Assembly (NCBI GenBank): GCA_018814265.1
Contig: JAHIZU010000215.1
Location: 1-15,862 of the forward strand
DNA: 15,862 nt
DNA from: Candidatus Margulisiibacteriota bacterium
Lineage (GTDB): Bacteria; Margulisbacteria; WOR-1; O2-12-FULL-45-9
Reading direction: 5' to 3'
Of the stretch, positions 410 to 10,650 are shown in pieces. Positions within the stretch are counted from its first letter, which is position 1; each line of letters starts with the position of its first letter. Made by a program: the position numbers and the translations under genes. Below the pieces are notes generated by a model that searched no databases, was not told where the DNA came from, and was given only the letters and a program-made list of their open reading frames with translations.

Positions 410-1984
410 ATGCGGAAAAGATATTTTGCCTTTGCTGTTCTATTGATTTTTATTGCTGGCTGCGCAAGTCCTTCTCCTCAGAAAGATAAGCTGATAAAAC
501 TGCCCGATCCTTCTTCCGCTGATCCTCATGGCAGATTGGTTTTTGCTCTGGGCGGAGAGGTTTCCGTCTTAAATCCGATCTTGTCTACTGATTCGACTTC
601 TTCGGCTGTTGAAGGAACTATCTTTACCGGCATGACCAAGATCAATGAAAAGCTGGAAGTTGTGCCTGACCTGGCCAAGTCATGGCGGGTTTCCAAGGAT
701 GGGAGGGTTTGGACTTTCAAACTACGACGTGATGTCAAATGGCACGATGGACATCCCTTCACGGCTGAGGATGTTGTATTCACCTTTAATTCTATTCTTG
801 ATCCAAAAGTAAACTCGGTTCGCCGCAGTGACTATATCATTGATGGCGAGCCGATCAAGTTCAAGGCCCTGGATAAATTTACAGTTCAAGCCCTGCTGCC
901 TAAGCCTTTTGCCCCGTTTCTGGTCCGCTCAGGCATGAGCGTTATCCCTAAACACCTTTTAGCTGGCATAGATATTAATACAGCAGCTTTTAATCGTCAG
1001 CCAGTTGGCACCGGGCCTTTTATTCTTAAAGAGTGGGTGACAGGGGATCATCTAACAGTCGTGCGCAATCCCAATTATTATTTAGGGAATCCAAAGCTGG
1101 CAGAGATAATTTTCAAGATCATTCCTGATGAAAATGCTCGTTTAGTTGCCTTGGAGGCAGGCGAGATCGATCAAGCTGGCATTCCTCCCAAAGACTACAA
1201 GAGAATGAAGTCTTTGGCTGGCATAAATGTTTTTGAATTTGATAATCTTGTCTACACTTATTTAGGGTTTAATTTGGCTAATCCAAAATTCAAGGATAAG
1301 CGAGTGCGTCAGGCCCTGGCTTATGCAACGAATAAAGATCAGTTGGTTAATCTTATCTTTAAGGGCCTGGCTTCTCCTGCTTATGCTCCTTCTGCGCCGA
1401 TTTCCTGGGCTTATTCTGACAAGGTTGCCAAATATCCCTATAACCCTGAAAAGGCCAGGAAGCTTTTAGCTGAAGCCGGGGCAGAGGAGCTGGAATTTAC
1501 TATTCTGACCAATCAGGGGAACAAAGAACGTGAAAAGGCCGCGGTGATCCTGCAGCAGCAATTCAAAAAAGTCGGGGTAAAGGTTTCAGTTCGGATAATG
1601 GAATGGTCAGCTCTGCTTAAGATCGTCAATGCCAACAACGACCCAAAAGATTTTGAAACAGTCTTGATGGGCTGGTCGCTGGGGCTTGATCCTGATGCTT
1701 ATTCGATCTGGCACTCCTCCCAGTATCCCAGGGGCTTTAATTTTATCGATTATCATAACAGAAAAGTTAACCAGCTGCTGGAAAAAGGCCGCACAACTAT
1801 GGCCAAAGACAAACGCAAAAAGATCTATGCTAAGCTTTGGGAAGAAATTGCCTCTGATCAGCCGTATCTTTTTCTCTGGTATCCAAAGACAGTGGTGGGG
1901 GTGAGCGAGCGGGTGGGCGGATTGTCTGAACCTGGCCCGGCCGGCTTGATGCTGCATCTGGAAAAAGTTTTTGTGATTAAATGA
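410..1984 (+). CDS. ABC transporter substrate-binding lipoprotein, family 5 (peptide/nickel type)
   Basis: A 524-residue protein with a basic N-terminus, a hydrophobic core and a lipobox ending IAGC (Cys18), so it should be lipid-anchored outside the cytoplasmic membrane. The mature part reads as an SBP_bac_5 (DppA/OppA-like) protein: NPILSTDSTSSAVEG near the start, DLAKSWRVSKDGRVWTFKLR, VKWHDGHPFTAEDVVFTFN, then GTGPFILKEW and VRQALAYATNKDQLV. Length is normal for the family. It would capture the substrate and deliver it to the two permeases that follow. Its stop overlaps the start of the first permease in ATGA, a sign of translational coupling. No strong ribosome site is visible before ATG 410, but the signal sequence supports this start. 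Substrate (peptide, nickel-chelate, sugar or other) cannot be decided from sequence. Confidence 0.93.
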   Translation: MRKRYFAFAVLLIFIAGCASPSPQKDKLIKLPDPSSADPHGRLVFALGGEVSVLNPILSTDSTSSAVEGTIFTGMTKINEKLEVVPDLAKSWRVSKDGRVWTFKLRRDVKWHDGHPFTAEDVVFTFNSILDPKVNSVRRSDYIIDGEPIKFKALDKFTVQALLPKPFAPFLVRSGMSVIPKHLLAGIDINTAAFNRQPVGTGPFILKEWVTGDHLTVVRNPNYYLGNPKLAEIIFKIIPDENARLVALEAGEIDQAGIPPKDYKRMKSLAGINVFEFDNLVYTYLGFNLANPKFKDKRVRQALAYATNKDQLVNLIFKGLASPAYAPSAPISWAYSDKVAKYPYNPEKARKLLAEAGAEELEFTILTNQGNKEREKAAVILQQQFKKVGVKVSVRIMEWSALLKIVNANNDPKDFETVLMGWSLGLDPDAYSIWHSSQYPRGFNFIDYHNRKVNQLLEKGRTTMAKDKRKKIYAKLWEEIASDQPYLFLWYPKTVVGVSERVGGLSEPGPAGLMLHLEKVFVIK

Positions 1985-2952
1985 GAAAATTCGTCTTTCG
2001 CAGATTACTGCAATTGATCCCTCTTTTGATCGGGGTTTCTTTGATCTCCTTTTTTGTCATGCACCTTGCTCCTGGTGACCCGACCTCTTTGTTTACTGAC
2101 CCCAATATCGACCCGATGGATCTGGCTAGAATTAGAGCTAATTGGGGCCTGGATAAGCCAATTATTATCCAATACTTTTATTGGTTGGGGAATGTTGTGC
2201 GCGGAGATTTTGGCACCAGCTATATGTCGGGCCAGCCTGTGCTCAAGGAAATTTTAGAGAGATTGCCGAATACGCTGCTGCTCATGGTCGCTTCCTATAT
2301 TTTAACTTTACTGATCACTATTCCCCTGGGAGTTATTTCCGCGGTTAAGAAAGGAAAGTGGTTTGATAATTTGGTGACTGTTCTATCCTTCGCTGGAATG
2401 GCCACCCCTTCTTTTTGGTTAGGAATGATGTTGATGTTGCTGTTCTCGGTCAAGCTGGGCTGGCTGCCGGCTGTTGGCATGTATGATCCGTTGATCAGGG
2501 ATCAGGGGGTAGGGGTTAGGGTTTTAGATTTAATCCGACATATGATCTTGCCTTTGACTACGATGACGGTTCTGAGTCTGGCAGGCATAACTCGATATCA
2601 ACGAGCAGCCATGCTTGAGGTCCTGAACCAGGATTTTATCCGCACTGCGCGGGCCAAAGGTTTGCCAGAAAGAGTCGTGATCTTTAAACATGCGTTAAGG
2701 AATGCTTTGATCCCCATTGTAACTATTTTGGGCCTGTCTTTGCCCGGTCTTTTTGGCGGCGCTTTTATTATTGAAACTATTTTTGCCTGGCCGGGTATGG
2801 GCAGGTTAGGGGTTTTAGCGATCTTTCAGAGAAATTATCCCTTGATCATGGGGATCGTGGTTTTCTCCGCGGTTTTGATCATGTTAGGCAATCTTTTGGC
2901 TGATATTTGCTATGCGCTGGTTGATCCGAGGATCAGGTATGCTAAGAAATAA
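1981..2952 (+). CDS. ABC transporter permease, DppB/OppB type
   Basis: A 323-residue inner-membrane protein of usual family length. It has about six predicted membrane segments near residues 10-29, 98-122, 133-156, 188-204, 242-264 and 288-312. The N-terminal region reads HLAPGDP then WGLDKPIIIQYFYW, characteristic of DppB-type permeases. The EAA-like cytoplasmic loop that contacts the ATPase lies at about 211-240 (DFIRTARAKGLPERVVIFKHA). The C-terminus carries the DPRIRY signature. It forms the translocation pore with the next gene's product. The start overlaps the binding-protein stop by four bases (ATGA), and the end overlaps the next permease by 14 bases. Confidence 0.94.
   Translation: MRKFVFRRLLQLIPLLIGVSLISFFVMHLAPGDPTSLFTDPNIDPMDLARIRANWGLDKPIIIQYFYWLGNVVRGDFGTSYMSGQPVLKEILERLPNTLLLMVASYILTLLITIPLGVISAVKKGKWFDNLVTVLSFAGMATPSFWLGMMLMLLFSVKLGWLPAVGMYDPLIRDQGVGVRVLDLIRHMILPLTTMTVLSLAGITRYQRAAMLEVLNQDFIRTARAKGLPERVVIFKHALRNALIPIVTILGLSLPGLFGGAFIIETIFAWPGMGRLGVLAIFQRNYPLIMGIVVFSAVLIMLGNLLADICYALVDPRIRYAKK
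2928..2933 (+). promoter_or_regulatory. Ribosome binding site that fixes the start of the second permease
   Basis: GAGGAT sits inside the end of the upstream permease gene, six bases before ATG 2939 when counted from GAGGA. It supports ATG 2939 over the in-frame ATG at 2912, which would add nine residues copied from the overlapping gene's frame and has no comparable site. Confidence 0.6.
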
Positions 2953-3739
2953 GTTCGCGATATTCGGTTTATTAGTGCTTGGTTTCTTTGTTCTGGTGGC
3001 GATATTTGCTCCGCTGATCGCGCCGTATGATCCGGGTGAGATAGTGGAGTCAGAAACTTTGCCGCCCAGTTTTGCCCACCCCTTTGGCACAGATGATCTG
3101 GGACGAGATATTCTTAGTCGGGCGATTTATGGCGCCAGGATATCTTTGACCGTGGGAATAGTCGCGGTGACGATCGCGATCCTGATCGGAACTTTATTCG
3201 GCGCTTTTGCCGGTTATTTTGGCGGTTGGGTGGATGGGATCGTGATGCGGTTTGTTGATGTGATGCTGTCTTTTCCGTCTATTTTCCTGATCCTGGCTAT
3301 TCAAGCTATGCTGACCCCAAATATTTATAACGTGATGATCGTGATCGGCCTAACTTCCTGGATGGGAGTAGCCAGGCTGGTGAGGGGAGAATTTTTAAAG
3401 ATCCGCGAACTCCAATACGTTGAGGCTGCTAAAGCCATCGGCTGTTCCAATCCTAGAATTATTTTTCGACATATGCTGCCAAACGCCCAGGCTCCCATTA
3501 TTGTAGCCGCTACATTGGGAATGGCGGGAGCAATTTTGACCGAATCTGCTCTGTCCTTTTTGGGTATGGGAGTCCAGCCCCCCATGCCTTCCTGGGGGAA
3601 CATGCTAATGGATGCGCAAGCCTATATGCGCGACGCGCCCTGGATGGCGATTATTCCCGGTTTGTTGATTTTGGTTACAGTTTTAAGCCTGTATTTTGTA
3701 GGCGAAGGCTTGCGCGAAGCCTTGGATCCTCGCAGATAA
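2939..3739 (+). CDS. ABC transporter permease, DppC/OppC type
   Basis: A 266-residue inner-membrane permease from ATG 2939, which has a ribosome site; the in-frame ATG 2912 is possible but less likely. It begins LRNKFAIFGLLVLGFFVLVAI, the first membrane segment. It then carries the periplasmic HPFGTDDLGRD signature at about 47-57, further segments, and the EAA loop at about 151-180 (EFLKIRELQYVEAAKAIGCS). SALSFLGMGVQPPMPSWG, typical of DppC, follows near 203-220, and the end reads GEGLREALDPRR. It pairs with the upstream permease. The next gene starts 60 bases later and is not a transporter gene: three unrecognised paralogues separate this permease from the ATPase. Confidence 0.93.
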   Translation: MLRNKFAIFGLLVLGFFVLVAIFAPLIAPYDPGEIVESETLPPSFAHPFGTDDLGRDILSRAIYGARISLTVGIVAVTIAILIGTLFGAFAGYFGGWVDGIVMRFVDVMLSFPSIFLILAIQAMLTPNIYNVMIVIGLTSWMGVARLVRGEFLKIRELQYVEAAKAIGCSNPRIIFRHMLPNAQAPIIVAATLGMAGAILTESALSFLGMGVQPPMPSWGNMLMDAQAYMRDAPWMAIIPGLLILVTVLSLYFVGEGLREALDPRR

Positions 3740-3799: not shown

Positions 3800-5071
3800 A
3801 TGCCTAATTTAAGCTCACCAAGCGTATTCAGTAAACACCTGCGCAGTGTGCATCAACCAACTGTTAATGCTGTCACAATGGGGTTAGGGAGGAAAATCCT
3901 GGGCAGGTGGTGGAAGGTTATCTATATCCCATCCATAAACGAGAATTTTGTGAAGATAAGGATGGGTGAGAGGGAGATAAAGATTTCTGGTTTTACCGGG
4001 TATGATCGAGTATTCTCTTTGATCTTCGAACAAAAATTTAAAGACGGCAGGAGAATTGTCGCTAATTTTTATCCTGACAAAGTTACAGCTAAAAATGCCA
4101 CTCAGCCTTTAAAGACGGTTGTTTTATCAGTAAAACAAAGAACCTCAGGCCAAAGAAGGGGAGGCGAATGGACTGTCTTGCAGCCGCCTGAAATTATTTA
4201 TGCTTCTCCAAATAGTCCGGTTCAGGAGATGAGATTGCGCACTAAAAGATTGAAGGAATTTTTACTGGCGGATCAGCCAGCTGGGGCTCATTTTGATCTG
4301 GAGCCTCGCAATGTCGGCCGCAATGGAGAGATCCGATTTAGTATTGATGAGAAATTGATTATTCTATGCGGATTTTTGGACTTTGCTGGTCAGTATCTTC
4401 CAGGCAGGGTTGTTTCCGAAGGCAATGTTAAAAAAGCTTATTTCTGGGCGGATATTTGGTCAAGGGATTCATGCGCTCGAGCAATTATTCCGGATGGAAG
4501 CGTAATGCTTTCGCAGGTTGATGGCAGATTTGACCTGGAGTCAGGCAGACCGGCTGGAGAAATAAAGGGCGAGATAGGCGAGACTTTGCAATATGGAAGA
4601 TATTTATATGCCACAGTCGGAGATAAGCTTTATGTTCGCTTATGGAATGTGACTGTGGTAAATGACAGTAGCCGCAACCAGCCGTGCCGCAAGCTGCACA
4701 AAAGGATTCGCGGCAAGAACTGCACTCTTGCAGTCGGCAGTTTTCCTGAGGTGGATTCTTTTTATTCAGTTGCGCGGGAATTGCAGAAAAGAATAAAACT
4801 AGTTGAATTTTGGACTTCTGGAGAAGCATATGAAATGGGAGAAAACCCTGTTCGGGCCAGGTTTATTACCTTTCGAGCGAGTGATAACGGCAAAGTGAAT
4901 GGTTGGATGCATTTTTGGAGCAGGCTGGATGATGCCGGTAAATTCAGAAGCCTGCTGCGGCGAAAATTAATTACGCGCGATGATCTGCTCTGGCTCTTAA
5001 GTGATAAATATTTAATTGAGGGCCCTTATCGGTCTGCTATGAATAGCTTGATTTGGGGTTTGAATTTGTAG
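3800..5071 (+). CDS. Unrecognised repeat protein, short paralogue (copy 1 of 3)
   Basis: I do not recognise this 423-residue protein. AGAGGA lies six bases before ATG 3800. No signal peptide or membrane segment is visible, so it is probably cytoplasmic. It aligns with the two genes that follow but lacks their first repeat, starting where their second begins (GLGRKILGRWWKV, residues 28-40). Three degenerate repeats can be marked at about 30-126, 166-250 and 268-376. Each pairs a Gly-rich/Tyr motif (GFTGYDRVFSLIFE; SFPEVDSFYSVARE) with a downstream aromatic motif (NFY, YFW, EFW) and ends in a Trp-containing strand. A charged helical linker lies at about 142-159 and a helical tail at about 377-423. 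It is basic overall and contains four Cys not in a metal-binding pattern. Lying between transporter genes on the same strand suggests co-transcription, but a role in transport is only a guess. Confidence 0.8.
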   Translation: MPNLSSPSVFSKHLRSVHQPTVNAVTMGLGRKILGRWWKVIYIPSINENFVKIRMGEREIKISGFTGYDRVFSLIFEQKFKDGRRIVANFYPDKVTAKNATQPLKTVVLSVKQRTSGQRRGGEWTVLQPPEIIYASPNSPVQEMRLRTKRLKEFLLADQPAGAHFDLEPRNVGRNGEIRFSIDEKLIILCGFLDFAGQYLPGRVVSEGNVKKAYFWADIWSRDSCARAIIPDGSVMLSQVDGRFDLESGRPAGEIKGEIGETLQYGRYLYATVGDKLYVRLWNVTVVNDSSRNQPCRKLHKRIRGKNCTLAVGSFPEVDSFYSVARELQKRIKLVEFWTSGEAYEMGENPVRARFITFRASDNGKVNGWMHFWSRLDDAGKFRSLLRRKLITRDDLLWLLSDKYLIEGPYRSAMNSLIWGLNL

Positions 5072-5074
5072 GAG
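5070..5074 (+). promoter_or_regulatory. Ribosome binding site that fixes the start of the second unknown paralogue
   Basis: AGGAG overlaps the TAG stop of the first paralogue and lies five bases before ATG 5080. It favours ATG 5080 over the in-frame ATG 5053, which lies inside the previous gene and has no site. The in-frame GTG 5074 falls within the site itself. Confidence 0.55.
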
Positions 5075-5079
5075 TGACT

Positions 5080-6759
5080 ATGGTTGTTTTGCGCGCCATA
5101 AATACTAAATTGAACAACCGCGGCATGTTTGCTAATGCCAGCAGGATCGTTGATGCCATGCCTAATTGGCCGGGCTTAGCAAGATTTTTAATTACTGATG
5201 CTGGATCAGTGGTCTACAGGCGCAGATATGGCATTTCAAATGGCCTGCTTAAGATCAGCGTTAAATATGGGCAGCAAGTTAAGACAATTGCAGTCCTGGG
5301 CTTGTCGGGTCTGGACCAGATATTTGTAGCAATAAGGGAAGAGCGGTTAAGGAGTGGTGGTGGAAGAAAAGTTCTATACGGTTGGGAAAAGGAAGATGAT
5401 TGGGGGATCATGGCCAGGGCAAGGGTTCGTTATGTAGTTGCCGAAAAGAAATCAAAAACTGGATTATGGGAACTACTAACGCCGCCTTTAGTCTTAAAAG
5501 GCTTAACAGAGGCCCAGGCGGCCAAGAGAGCTGGTGAGGCTACTTTTGAGGCAGTAACCAAGGGGTTGGGCAGAAAAAAACTCACAAGGTGGTGGAGAGT
5601 TAATGAAAGAGAGCGACGGCCTTATGTCCAATATAAATGCTTTGCCATGCAGCTTAGGATCTACGGGTTTGATGGGTTTGAGCGAGTTTATTCGGTTATT
5701 GCCGAAGAAAAAGGCCAGATCATTGGCCGGTTTTACGCTGATCCTGCCAGCGCCAGATCAGGCGAGGGAATGATGAAAGAAGTCCTGCTGTCTGAGAAGG
5801 ATCAGGCTGGTCACTGGAGCCCGCTAAAGCCGCCGAAGCTTATTTTCGCTGCAGCCAGTTCCACTAATCAAAATCATAAAATTGAGGTCCGCAGGATATT
5901 GGACTTTTTGCGTGCTGATCTGCCGGACGGAAACGTTCTTGATCTTAAGCCGCGTCGGGTTAGAAGCCGGGGGGTGCGTTTCCATATGGGTGAAGACGCA
6001 GAAGACCGGGGAGCTGTTTCCTTGAACGGCTATAAGGATCATCAGGAAGTTACTGGCAGGCTCGTGGTTGAGACCGGGGAAAAGCGAGCCTATTTTTGGC
6101 CGAGCCCTGAGTCACGGGATCAAGGAGACCCTCCGATAATTGAACAAGGACACGTTATGGCAAGAAGGGCGGCAGAAAAGGATGCTTGGGAATTGATCTT
6201 AAGATATGCGGCTAAAGAAGTAATTACCAGGAAAGCGGCAACGCGGGCTTATATGAGATATTTGTTTGCTACGGTCGGGCCTAAAGTTTATTTTGATACC
6301 TGGCCGATTTATAGCGACATTTATCGCGGCCGGGAACGGAGAAGGATCACCAGAAAGATTAGAGATGTAACGATGAATGTTGGTGTCACAAAGGTTTCCG
6401 GACTTGGCGAGGAGGCTTATTCAGTTACCCGTGAGGTTGCCCGGATGATCAAGCTGGTTGAATTTTGGCCAGCCAGACAGGCCTTTGAAAGAGGGGAAAG
6501 GGCTTTGGCAGCCCGCTTTATAACTTTTAATCTCAATGGCCTGGCAGGTAAAGAGCAGAACGGCAGGAATTGGATGCCCTTTTGGTCGAAGCTAGATGAT
6601 GTGGCCGGATTTAAGAAACTAATTAAAGATGGTTTCTTAACGCCTGCCATATTCAATGAAATCCTGGGAGACGAATATCTTGGAGATAACTATAGCAGCC
6701 AGGTTATTGGGCTTGTTGATAATTTTAAACTCTTTGAATTAACCGGAGTAAGATCATGA
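5080..6759 (+). CDS. Unrecognised four-repeat protein (copy 2 of 3)
   Basis: A 559-residue protein of unknown function from ATG 5080 (ATG 5053 would add nine residues). Four degenerate repeats can be read at about 43-133, 162-249, 288-373 and 396-506. Their Gly/Tyr motifs are GLSGLDQIFVAIREE, GFDGFERVYSVIAEE, a divergent GYKDHQEVTGRLVVE and GLGEEAYSVTREV. Each is followed by an aromatic motif (LYGW, RFY, YFW, EFW) and ends in a Trp-containing strand (LWELL, HWSPL, AWELI, WMPFW). The last 50 residues look helical and are shared with both neighbours. It is strongly basic, with no signal peptide, membrane segment or catalytic motif I know. Repeated aromatic beta-type strands suggest a scaffold or binding protein, but that is inference. 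It ends in ATGA overlap with the third copy. Confidence 0.8.
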   Translation: MVVLRAINTKLNNRGMFANASRIVDAMPNWPGLARFLITDAGSVVYRRRYGISNGLLKISVKYGQQVKTIAVLGLSGLDQIFVAIREERLRSGGGRKVLYGWEKEDDWGIMARARVRYVVAEKKSKTGLWELLTPPLVLKGLTEAQAAKRAGEATFEAVTKGLGRKKLTRWWRVNERERRPYVQYKCFAMQLRIYGFDGFERVYSVIAEEKGQIIGRFYADPASARSGEGMMKEVLLSEKDQAGHWSPLKPPKLIFAAASSTNQNHKIEVRRILDFLRADLPDGNVLDLKPRRVRSRGVRFHMGEDAEDRGAVSLNGYKDHQEVTGRLVVETGEKRAYFWPSPESRDQGDPPIIEQGHVMARRAAEKDAWELILRYAAKEVITRKAATRAYMRYLFATVGPKVYFDTWPIYSDIYRGRERRRITRKIRDVTMNVGVTKVSGLGEEAYSVTREVARMIKLVEFWPARQAFERGERALAARFITFNLNGLAGKEQNGRNWMPFWSKLDDVAGFKKLIKDGFLTPAIFNEILGDEYLGDNYSSQVIGLVDNFKLFELTGVRS

Positions 6760-8429
6760 CAATATCAGGACCGAGAAATATTAGGGCCCAAGGTCTCTTT
6801 GCCGGAAGATATCCGGTGATTGACGGAAGGTTGCATTCACGTGCTTATGGATTAAGGACCTTCTTGCTTAGAGATGCGGCGAACACAGTTTATAGAAGAG
6901 AATATCCACTTCACAACGGCTACCTCCATCTAGCTGTCACACTTAAAGATGGGAAAAAAATAAGTCCGATCTGGATAACTAAAGAATTTAATAAGTTTTA
7001 TGTTGCTGTCAGAGAGGAGAGACTCGAAAACGGTCGATCTCGCAAAGTCCTTTACGGATGGGGAAAACAGGCTGATTGGGGCGTGATGGCCAGGGCGCGC
7101 GTCAGATACATAGTGGCTGAAAAAGAGAATGCAGAAAGTGAATGGCAGATATTGCATATTCCAAGGGCGCTCAAAGGCTTGACCGAGCGTCAGGAGGTTA
7201 GAAAAGAAAATGACCCAACGGTTGAGGCAATGACGCAAGGATTGGGCAAACGGATCTATCGTCGTTGGTGGAATGTTACGCTTGGCAGTAATGGGGATAA
7301 GTATGTTAAGTATGCTTTTGAAGGCTTGGATATATTAATTCATGGTTTTGCCGGCTATGATCGGGTTTACTCTTTGATCGCAGAAGAAGGCGACCGCATT
7401 ATTGCCCGCTTTTATCAAGGGCCAGACGAAGCCCGTCAGGGCGCACCACTGATCAAAGCAGTCATCATGGCCAGAAAAAGTAACGGCAACGGTAATGGTA
7501 ATGGACGCTTATGGCGGCCGCTGCTCTTTCCTCAAGTAATAACTGCAAGTCCTAACAATGTGATACAACACCATCGAGCAACGATTCGGGAGATAAAAGC
7601 GTTTTTGCTGGCTCGCGAACAGGAAACGGGAACTGAACTTATGATCGATCCTCGGCCGGTTAATCAAAATGGAACAGTTCGTTTTGGTATAGATTCCAGG
7701 AGTGACTGGGGCGGAGTTATTGAAATAAGAGGCTATAAAGGGTATGAGACTGTCGCTGGAAAGATTATGGTTGAAGGTGCGATAAAGAAAGCATATTTTT
7801 GGGCTGATGAAGCAGTAAGAGGCAATGGTGAGCCGGCGATCCGGACGGAGGGTCATCTGATTGCTAAAAAGAGCGTTGATCTCATCAACAAGAAAGAGCA
7901 ATGGGAGATAATTTGGCGCGACCCTATCTGGGGGGCAAGACGAGTGCGACAAGCCTCTATTGAGTACGGAAATATTGTTTTTAGTACTGCTGGCAGTGAG
8001 ATCCACTTGTCTACTTGGCCGGTAAGAATTCAAATGAGTAATGGTTATCAGCAGCATTGGGCGGTCAGGGCTTTTCGCGGGGGGCGCAGGAAGGTGAATT
8101 TGCATGGGATGTCGGGGATTGGAGAAGAGATTTTTTCAGTCACCAGGGAATTTCAAGGGATGATAAAGCTGGTAGAGTTTTGGAAACAAGCAACAGATTA
8201 TGTTGCCGGTGAACGGCCATTTGACTCGCGCTTTATTGCTTTTAGGCCTAGCGGTAAGAACTGGATGCATTTTTGGGCCAGGTTTGATGAGATAAAGCTT
8301 TTTAAACGGCTTATCCAGCAGGGTTTACTTACAAAAAAAGAACTAAATAGAATTGTTTGTGATGACTATTTAGCTGGAAATTATGAGCAGAAAATGATTG
8401 TGCTGATCGATTCCCTGAATCTTTATTGA
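6756..8429 (+). CDS. Unrecognised four-repeat protein (copy 3 of 3)
   Basis: A 557-residue protein starting in ATGA overlap with copy 2, with GGAG seven bases upstream. It is collinear with copy 2 over its whole length. In one conserved block (KVLYGW..DWG.MARARVRY) 22 of 27 positions match. Four repeats lie near 45-133, 162-256, 298-386 and 408-508. Their aromatic motifs are LYGW, RFY, YFW and EFW, after GYDRVYSLIAEE, GYKGYETVAGKI and GIGEEIFSVTREF. A four-unit Asn-Gly run at residues 243-250 forms a flexible loop in repeat 2 that is absent from the other copies. The C-terminal helical module (LLTKKELNRIVCDDYLAGNY) matches both neighbours. No export signal or known catalytic motif is seen. 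The transporter ATPase starts 42 bases downstream on the same strand. Function unknown. Confidence 0.8.
   Translation: MTISGPRNIRAQGLFAGRYPVIDGRLHSRAYGLRTFLLRDAANTVYRREYPLHNGYLHLAVTLKDGKKISPIWITKEFNKFYVAVREERLENGRSRKVLYGWGKQADWGVMARARVRYIVAEKENAESEWQILHIPRALKGLTERQEVRKENDPTVEAMTQGLGKRIYRRWWNVTLGSNGDKYVKYAFEGLDILIHGFAGYDRVYSLIAEEGDRIIARFYQGPDEARQGAPLIKAVIMARKSNGNGNGNGRLWRPLLFPQVITASPNNVIQHHRATIREIKAFLLAREQETGTELMIDPRPVNQNGTVRFGIDSRSDWGGVIEIRGYKGYETVAGKIMVEGAIKKAYFWADEAVRGNGEPAIRTEGHLIAKKSVDLINKKEQWEIIWRDPIWGARRVRQASIEYGNIVFSTAGSEIHLSTWPVRIQMSNGYQQHWAVRAFRGGRRKVNLHGMSGIGEEIFSVTREFQGMIKLVEFWKQATDYVAGERPFDSRFIAFRPSGKNWMHFWARFDEIKLFKRLIQQGLLTKKELNRIVCDDYLAGNYEQKMIVLIDSLNLY
7482..7505 (+). repeat. 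Asn-Gly codon repeat inside the third paralogue
   Basis: Four AAY-GGN codon pairs in a row encode (Asn-Gly)4. The codons vary (aac/aat, ggc/ggt/gga), so this is not a perfect microsatellite. It falls in a predicted loop just before a Trp-containing strand, where copies 1 and 2 have shorter charged loops. Confidence 0.8.
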
Positions 8430-8471
8430 CTTGATTTGACTTCCTGACCCTGTTTTGTTAACCTTCTTTTT

Positions 8472-10650
<2,179 letters not shown>

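What the first reader, a model, noticed from the sequence alone, without database searches (positions are those of the whole stretch)
3800..8429. Three tandem paralogues of an unrecognised protein family inside an ABC importer gene cluster
Two permease genes and their ATPase gene are separated by 4.6 kb holding three same-strand, tightly packed paralogues (short overlaps, good ribosome sites) that I cannot place in any family. They have no export signal, are basic, and have kept long open frames despite strong divergence. Either they are functionally tied to the importer (for example handling its cargo in the cytoplasm) or the array was inserted into a standing operon. This is the best candidate here for something undescribed.
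Basis: partly seen in the sequence, partly recalled or inferred. Interest (0 to 1): 0.78.

Follow-up and report, generated by a model that had tools for sequence, protein, structure and literature searches.

The report
Four-module unknown proteins inside transporter operon
Three related genes of an undescribed, clade-restricted protein family, each built from three or four copies of the same roughly 100-residue module, sit as an insertion inside an otherwise ordinary peptide-importer operon of an uncultured bacterium; what they do is unknown and they are probably not part of the importer.

Summary
3800-5071, 5080-6759 and 6756-8429 encode paralogues (35-39% identical) between dppC and dppD, with no convincing match in Pfam, NCBIfam, PHROGs, PADLOC or PDB sequences. 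New anatomy: each protein is a tandem array of a ~100-residue module (three copies in the first, four in the others). One module folds confidently alone (AlphaFold2 pLDDT 86.9, pTM 0.80: helix plus seven strands); Foldseek finds no significant PDB match. The family is basic, lacks export signals in the window copies, diverges fast, and is found in 6 of 74 genomes of the phylum (window included), all in one class (by record titles Saganbacteria/WOR-1), and in 0 of 29 and 0 of 294 genomes elsewhere (overlapping sets). The importer reading does badly on the finder's own test: dppC and dppD are contiguous in 19 of 22 relatives measured, and 7 of 9 other family loci lie away from dpp genes. The array is an insertion into a standing operon, a kind of site that takes unrelated cargo in relatives. 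Against this, one relative of another family has a member at the same junction and shares a promoter-like stretch before dppD. Best guess: accessory basic multivalent binding protein, perhaps for nucleic acid; function not shown.

The parts
3800..5071 (+). W1, 423 aa, three-module family protein (modules about 3860-4144, 4250-4525, 4589-4906); lacks the first module of its neighbours
5080..6759 (+). W2, 559 aa, four-module family protein (modules about 5176-5469, 5545-5817, 5902-6189, 6250-6540)
6756..8429 (+). W3, 557 aa, four-module family protein (modules about 6852-7148, 7221-7487, 7593-7877, 7962-8264) plus a C-terminal tail predicted helical
   Evidence: module model
8436..8464 (+). promoter-like TTGACT-17 nt-TAACCT, 7 nt before the dppD start codon (a leaderless start is inferred); the pattern occurs before dppD in G017 too and nowhere else in the 5 genomes searched
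410..1984 (+). host operon: solute-binding protein (SBP_bac_5)
1981..2952 (+). host operon: dppB-like permease
2912..3739 (+). host operon: dppC-like permease
8472..9254 (+). host operon: dppD-like ATPase; contiguous with dppC in 19 of 22 relatives in which both were measured

Best explanation
The three genes are accessory cargo inserted between dppC and dppD of a standing peptide-importer operon in a Saganbacteria (WOR-1) genome and multiplied there; they are not importer subunits. They are probably co-transcribed from the upstream dpp genes, while dppD has its own promoter-like stretch. Each protein is a cytoplasmic string of three or four ~100-residue helix-plus-seven-strand modules. With a strong positive charge and no conserved catalytic constellation, the most likely action is multivalent binding of a polyanion (nucleic acid the first guess), not catalysis. 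Shown by computation: position, paralogy, module array, basic charge, distribution, insertion relative to relatives; predicted: module fold. Inferred: co-transcription, promoter activity, cytoplasmic location, binding. The ligand is a guess (about 0.35).
For: Insertion: dppC-dppD contiguous in 19 of 23 class genomes with both genes on one strand (25 examined, window included); long gaps only in the window (4735), G017 (1803), G029 (1771) and G023 (1737). Of the 17 best loci of a named-genome scan, which overlap those genomes, 14 have dppD directly after dppC, one a 1771-base gap and two none. The operon carries other inserts in relatives: a 679-aa and an NHL gene between dppB and dppC (G008), an LGT-like and a sigma70_r4 gene between SBP and dppB (G007, G003). 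Further family pieces in the window's own genome lie at the ends of two contigs beside ilvD and ilvB; that junction is contiguous in 3 and filled in 6 of the 9 relatives with both genes on one contig (11 relatives searched), among others by a C5 methylase plus NgoFVII-type nuclease and by ORF6N and HEPN genes. Modules: 45 in 14 sequences and fragments; profiles built per position meet other positions at hhalign 81-95% for five of six pairs. Module model pLDDT 86.9, pTM 0.80. Charge: 14 of 14 sequences and fragments basic, pI 9.0-10.2. Of 48 strongly conserved columns in the nine-member alignment 34 are G, W, L, F, V or Y and none is H, C, D or S.
Against: G017, of another family, has a member at exactly the same junction and another after the next ATPase gene, and the stretch before dppD is conserved between the two genomes (0 of 5000 base shuffles as good), so the dpp link may be older or less accidental than plain cargo would be. 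The 5' junction is not significantly alike (265 of 5000). No inverted repeat or flanking direct repeat marks an element, and I saw no transposase among the window's ORFs (by eye; seven were run against Pfam). hhalign gives only 2.6% for modules 1 and 4, and only 11 of 111 cross-position profile tests reach E below 0.01. Basic charge does not show nucleic-acid binding; several unrelated unknown genes in these genomes are as basic. No recognised defence gene adjoins the window array.
Confidence: 0.62

Rival explanations
1. The proteins work with the peptide importer: they bind imported peptides or the ATPase in the cytoplasm, or regulate the operon in response to amino-acid supply.
For: Same junction occupied in two genomes of different families, with three genes in one operon and two in the other; other members lie beside amino-acid genes: ilvD and ilvB, cimA, valS, gatA. 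By my count 7 of 10 loci, three of them at dpp genes; the category was chosen after seeing the neighbours and no background rate was computed.
Against: 19 of 22 relatives measured have no gene between dppC and dppD. Of the five other class genomes with the family (of 30) one (G017) has it at dpp, three (G009, G015, G020) have dppC and dppD contiguous, and in one (G018) dppC was not found. dppD seems to have its own promoter-like site.
Confidence: 0.12
2. The family is an anti-phage or other conflict system, carried at operon junctions used as hot spots for such genes.
For: The ilvD-ilvB junction, beside which the window's genome has further family pieces, holds a methylase plus NgoFVII-type nuclease in G011 and HEPN plus an MNT-like gene in G010; in G009 the member lies about 1.5 kb from an MNT-like gene and 3 kb from a reverse transcriptase. 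Patchy distribution and fast divergence (end branches 0.6-2.7 changes per site, against 0.02-0.54 for DppC).
Against: No PADLOC match for any of nine members; junction occupants in several other relatives are not defence genes by Pfam; no effector-like domain found.
Confidence: 0.18
3. The proteins are remnants or domesticated structural parts of a phage or other mobile element.
For: Lineage-restricted, repeated, beta-rich by prediction, patchy; weak fold rows include phage tail and baseplate proteins.
Against: Only chance-level PHROGs rows (best E 0.039), no tblastn match of W3 in 50,697 phage and 72,556 plasmid records, none confirmed of 99 pattern matches in viral contigs, no viral model at E 0.001 or better for the module.
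Confidence: 0.06

Closest known systems
Dpp/Opp-type peptide ABC importer operon
   Same: The array shares strand and gene run with SBP, two permeases and one ATPase.
   Different: No sequence match to an importer family; nothing at the same position in 19 of 22 relatives measured.
[not shown]
   Same: 54-73 residues superpose at 3.1-3.9 A.
Accessory cargo at gene junctions (restriction-modification, HEPN with MNT-like gene) in the same clade
   Same: Occupies the same kind of site, a junction that is contiguous in other relatives.
   Different: No recognised defence or toxin domain in the family.

Membership tests
Peptide ABC importer component | Conserved presence in the operon across relatives | tested here: not met
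   dppC and dppD contiguous in 19 of 23 class genomes with both on one strand, window included
Peptide ABC importer component | Sequence match to an importer family | tested here: not met
   no such Pfam or NCBIfam match
Peptide ABC importer component | Physical interaction or effect on uptake | not testable with these tools
   needs experiment
Known anti-phage defence protein | Match to a PADLOC model | tested here: not met
   0 families at E 0.1 for nine members
Known anti-phage defence protein | Neighbourhood with defence genes | tested here: inconclusive
   the ilvD-ilvB junction in two relatives and one member's surroundings hold such genes; the window array has none that I recognised
Solved beta-fold families | Significant structural match of a confident model | tested here: inconclusive
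   [not shown]
Tandem-module proteins in the general sense | Homologous units in tandem within one chain | tested here: met
   the pair of positions 1 and 4 is not joined directly
B3-like DNA-binding domain of NgoFVII-type nucleases | Profile similarity | tested here: inconclusive
   hhalign probability 0.2% (module profile) and 0.1% (full-length profile), against one single sequence only

The most novel reading that the evidence does not exclude
A new superfamily of basic, multi-module proteins with a domain fold not represented in the PDB, working as nucleic-acid-binding regulators or antiterminators linked to amino-acid supply (members beside dpp, ilvD and ilvB, cimA, valS and gatA), confined to Saganbacteria.
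Probability: 0.1. Interest if true: 0.75.

Novelty: new variant of a known kind. Interest (0 to 1): 0.47.

Why it matters
It adds an undescribed modular protein family, with a confidently modelled domain for which I found no solved match, to a lineage that a 2019 paper calls a close phylogenetic neighbour of the Cyanobacteria (PMC6349859, start of abstract in the listing); I know of no cultured member (recalled). It also suggests that housekeeping operons in Saganbacteria can carry lineage-specific inserts at gene junctions (one dpp and one ilv operon examined, both chosen because a family gene is there), which would be a place to look for unknown accessory and defence genes.

Tried and rejected
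Spurious open frames: rejected, because identities, codon-position pattern and homologues in other genomes argue for real genes. The protein collection also holds W3 (P0001, 2 contigs, the longest 43,769 bases, longer than the window) and a near copy of W2 (P0002); these may come from the same sample.

Foreign arrival with a composition signature: GC of the array genes (0.44-0.47) is close to that of the neighbours (0.44-0.50); only the skews differ. No support.

A shared origin of the G000 and G017 insertions: the DppC tree puts G017 with its congener G015 (96/89) and leaves the window's place weak; the DppD tree puts G017 with G015 and G011, joined by G008 of the window's family (92/92), and leaves the window unresolved. 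The family tree joins W2 with the G017 member at 85/86, below the starred level, on long branches. Left open.

A known RNA element: no Rfam match in the window at gathering scores; the stretch before dppD has no stable fold.

Wider protein search: three searches found 3, 3 and 1 proteins. The second, by profile, did not list a member (P0004) that the third found at 100%, although its sequence was in the profile, so these searches are insensitive and absence there means little. Pattern scans of genome and viral contigs with the close alignment confirmed 0 of 62 and 0 of 99 pattern matches, with narrow patterns.

Papers: four library searches (8, 4, 26 with 8 listed, and 0 papers) and one search for six terms in PMC6349859 (one passage shown). 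I saw listings and that passage only; nothing there pointed to this family. Most subscription papers are not held, so this is no proof that it is unpublished.

Full report
What is there. The window is one whole contig (G000:C115) of a 1.48-Mb draft genome in 301 contigs, 80.5% complete. The gap between dppC and dppD is about 4.7 kb.

The family. W1-W3 are 35-39% identical. Nine family members were run against libraries: Pfam best E 0.031, NCBIfam 0.019 and 0.026, PHROGs 0.039, PADLOC none at 0.1. In the PDB, the whole-protein profile has one row at E 0.77 and the module profile none up to E 10. In the protein collection the closest relatives are a copy of W3, a near copy of W2 and a protein of 573 aa at 41% identity; the G020 member is deposited as 'hypothetical protein KKB81_07260 [Candidatus Margulisbacteria bacterium]'.

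Chemistry. All 14 sequences and fragments are basic (pI 9.0-10.2; W1-W3 net +22 to +29); W1-W3 have no hydrophobic N-terminus and no 19-residue stretch above 1.62 on the Kyte-Doolittle scale. Of 48 strongly conserved columns in the nine-member alignment, 34 are G, W, L, F, V or Y; none is His, Cys, Asp or Ser. This fits a binding or scaffold protein better than an enzyme. Divergence is high: end branches of the family tree run from 0.6 to 2.7 changes per site, median 1.87, against 0.02-0.54 for DppC in 23 genomes of the class.

Distribution. Family matches occur in 6 of 31 class genomes and 6 of 74 phylum genomes, all in the same class, window genome included; in 0 of 29 genomes reached through DppC loci of other lineages and 0 of 294 of the phylum of one of these, whose locus is titled Elusimicrobia bacterium (some genomes are in both sets). 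The last two have no positive control of their own, though the same profile finds members within the class. No match for W3 in phage or plasmid records.

Is it part of the importer? I measured gene gaps in 25 class genomes, window included. dppC and dppD lie on one strand in 23 and are contiguous in 19; the four exceptions are the window, G017 (one family gene), and G029 and G023, which share a different insert (a ferredoxin-like gene on the other strand, a LemA-like gene, both by eye, and an M48 peptidase). dppB-dppC is long in 1 of 24 (two other genes) and SBP-dppB in 2 of 15 (LGT-like and sigma70_r4 genes). Six class genomes were not measured because no full dppC locus was returned. In a scan of named genomes (80 best of 321 confirmed loci), a dppD follows on the same strand in 59 loci, within 100 nt in 44 of these, and in 21 none was found; no locus holds a family module at E below 0.1 among 7,919 open frames. 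So the ancestral order is contiguous and the array is an insertion.

Where the other members are (10 loci by my count with the window). Own genome: pieces at the ends of two contigs, beside ilvD and beside ilvB, which may be one gene between them; the contig ends share no overlap. G017: between dppC and dppD; after a dppF-like gene (N-terminal part on one contig, a C-terminal part beside an enolase gene on another; that they are one gene, and the gene names, are by eye); and beside citramalate synthase. G018: beside an isocitrate-dehydrogenase-like gene. G020: 20 nt upstream of valS, and in a run of unknown genes. G015: upstream of gatA. G009: between unknown genes, about 1.5 kb from an MNT-like gene and 3 kb from a reverse transcriptase with a bAvd-like part. 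The ilvD-ilvB junction was sought in 11 relatives; in 9 both genes lie on one contig: contiguous in 3 (gaps of about 30-60 nt) and filled in 6, by FGE-like, HATPase, phosphoesterase plus SprT-like, methylase plus NgoFVII-type nuclease, ORF6N plus HEPN, and one unmatched gene. Both junctions were chosen because a family gene is there, so these are not unbiased rates for the clade.

A puzzle. Before dppD the window and G017 share TTGACT-17 nt-TAACCT, 7 and 9 nt before the start codon; in five genomes searched, the pattern (with one more fixed base) occurs only at these two places, and the alignment of the two spacers beats all of 5,000 base shuffles. It looks like a leaderless promoter for dppD; contiguous relatives have no room for it between the genes. 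The 5' junctions are not significantly alike (265 of 5,000). A common insertion with later loss or exchange, or two insertions at the same place, are both possible; the DppC and DppD trees do not decide.

How it most likely works. The array rides in the dpp operon and makes three soluble, basic proteins with three or four modules each; the simplest action is multivalent binding, with nucleic acid the first guess because of charge, lack of conserved catalytic residues and the kind of cargo found at the ilvD-ilvB junction in some relatives. The steps from charge to ligand and from ligand to purpose are inference. A link to amino-acid supply is an after-the-fact impression from neighbours (7 of 10 loci, three of them dpp loci) with no background rate.

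Verdict. A real, undescribed, clade-restricted modular family; the importer link is not supported as a general property; function unknown, best guess accessory multivalent binding protein.

Noticed in passing
window 9251-10582, minus strand: The enolase gene is interrupted by an in-frame stop at 9794-9796, leaving two open frames; several relatives have an uninterrupted enolase frame of about 444 aa. Could be a sequencing error or a real change; described only.
   Followed up: partly
L026:12474-13969: A reverse transcriptase with a bAvd-like N-terminal part (Pfam RVT_1 and bAvd) next to a small gene without Pfam match whose end looks by eye like a C-type-lectin variable protein: a probable diversity-generating retroelement about 3 kb from a family gene in G009.
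   Followed up: partly
L231:2706-4832 (G011, ilvD-ilvB junction): A C5 cytosine methylase and an NgoFVII-type restriction nuclease inserted between ilvD and ilvB.
   Followed up: partly
L111:340-1824 (G003, between SBP and dppB, reverse strand): A 495-aa protein with a sigma-70 region 4 domain and long unmatched flanks inserted into the dpp operon.
   Followed up: no
L233:656-1227 and the same place in L227, L228, L231, L232, L234: Two small genes, alike by eye (about 79-133 and 73-87 aa as listed), lie directly upstream of ilvD in six Saganbacteria genomes.
   Followed up: no
L022:1990-6036 (G020): A 1348-aa acidic protein without Pfam match about 2.7 kb from a family gene.
   Followed up: no
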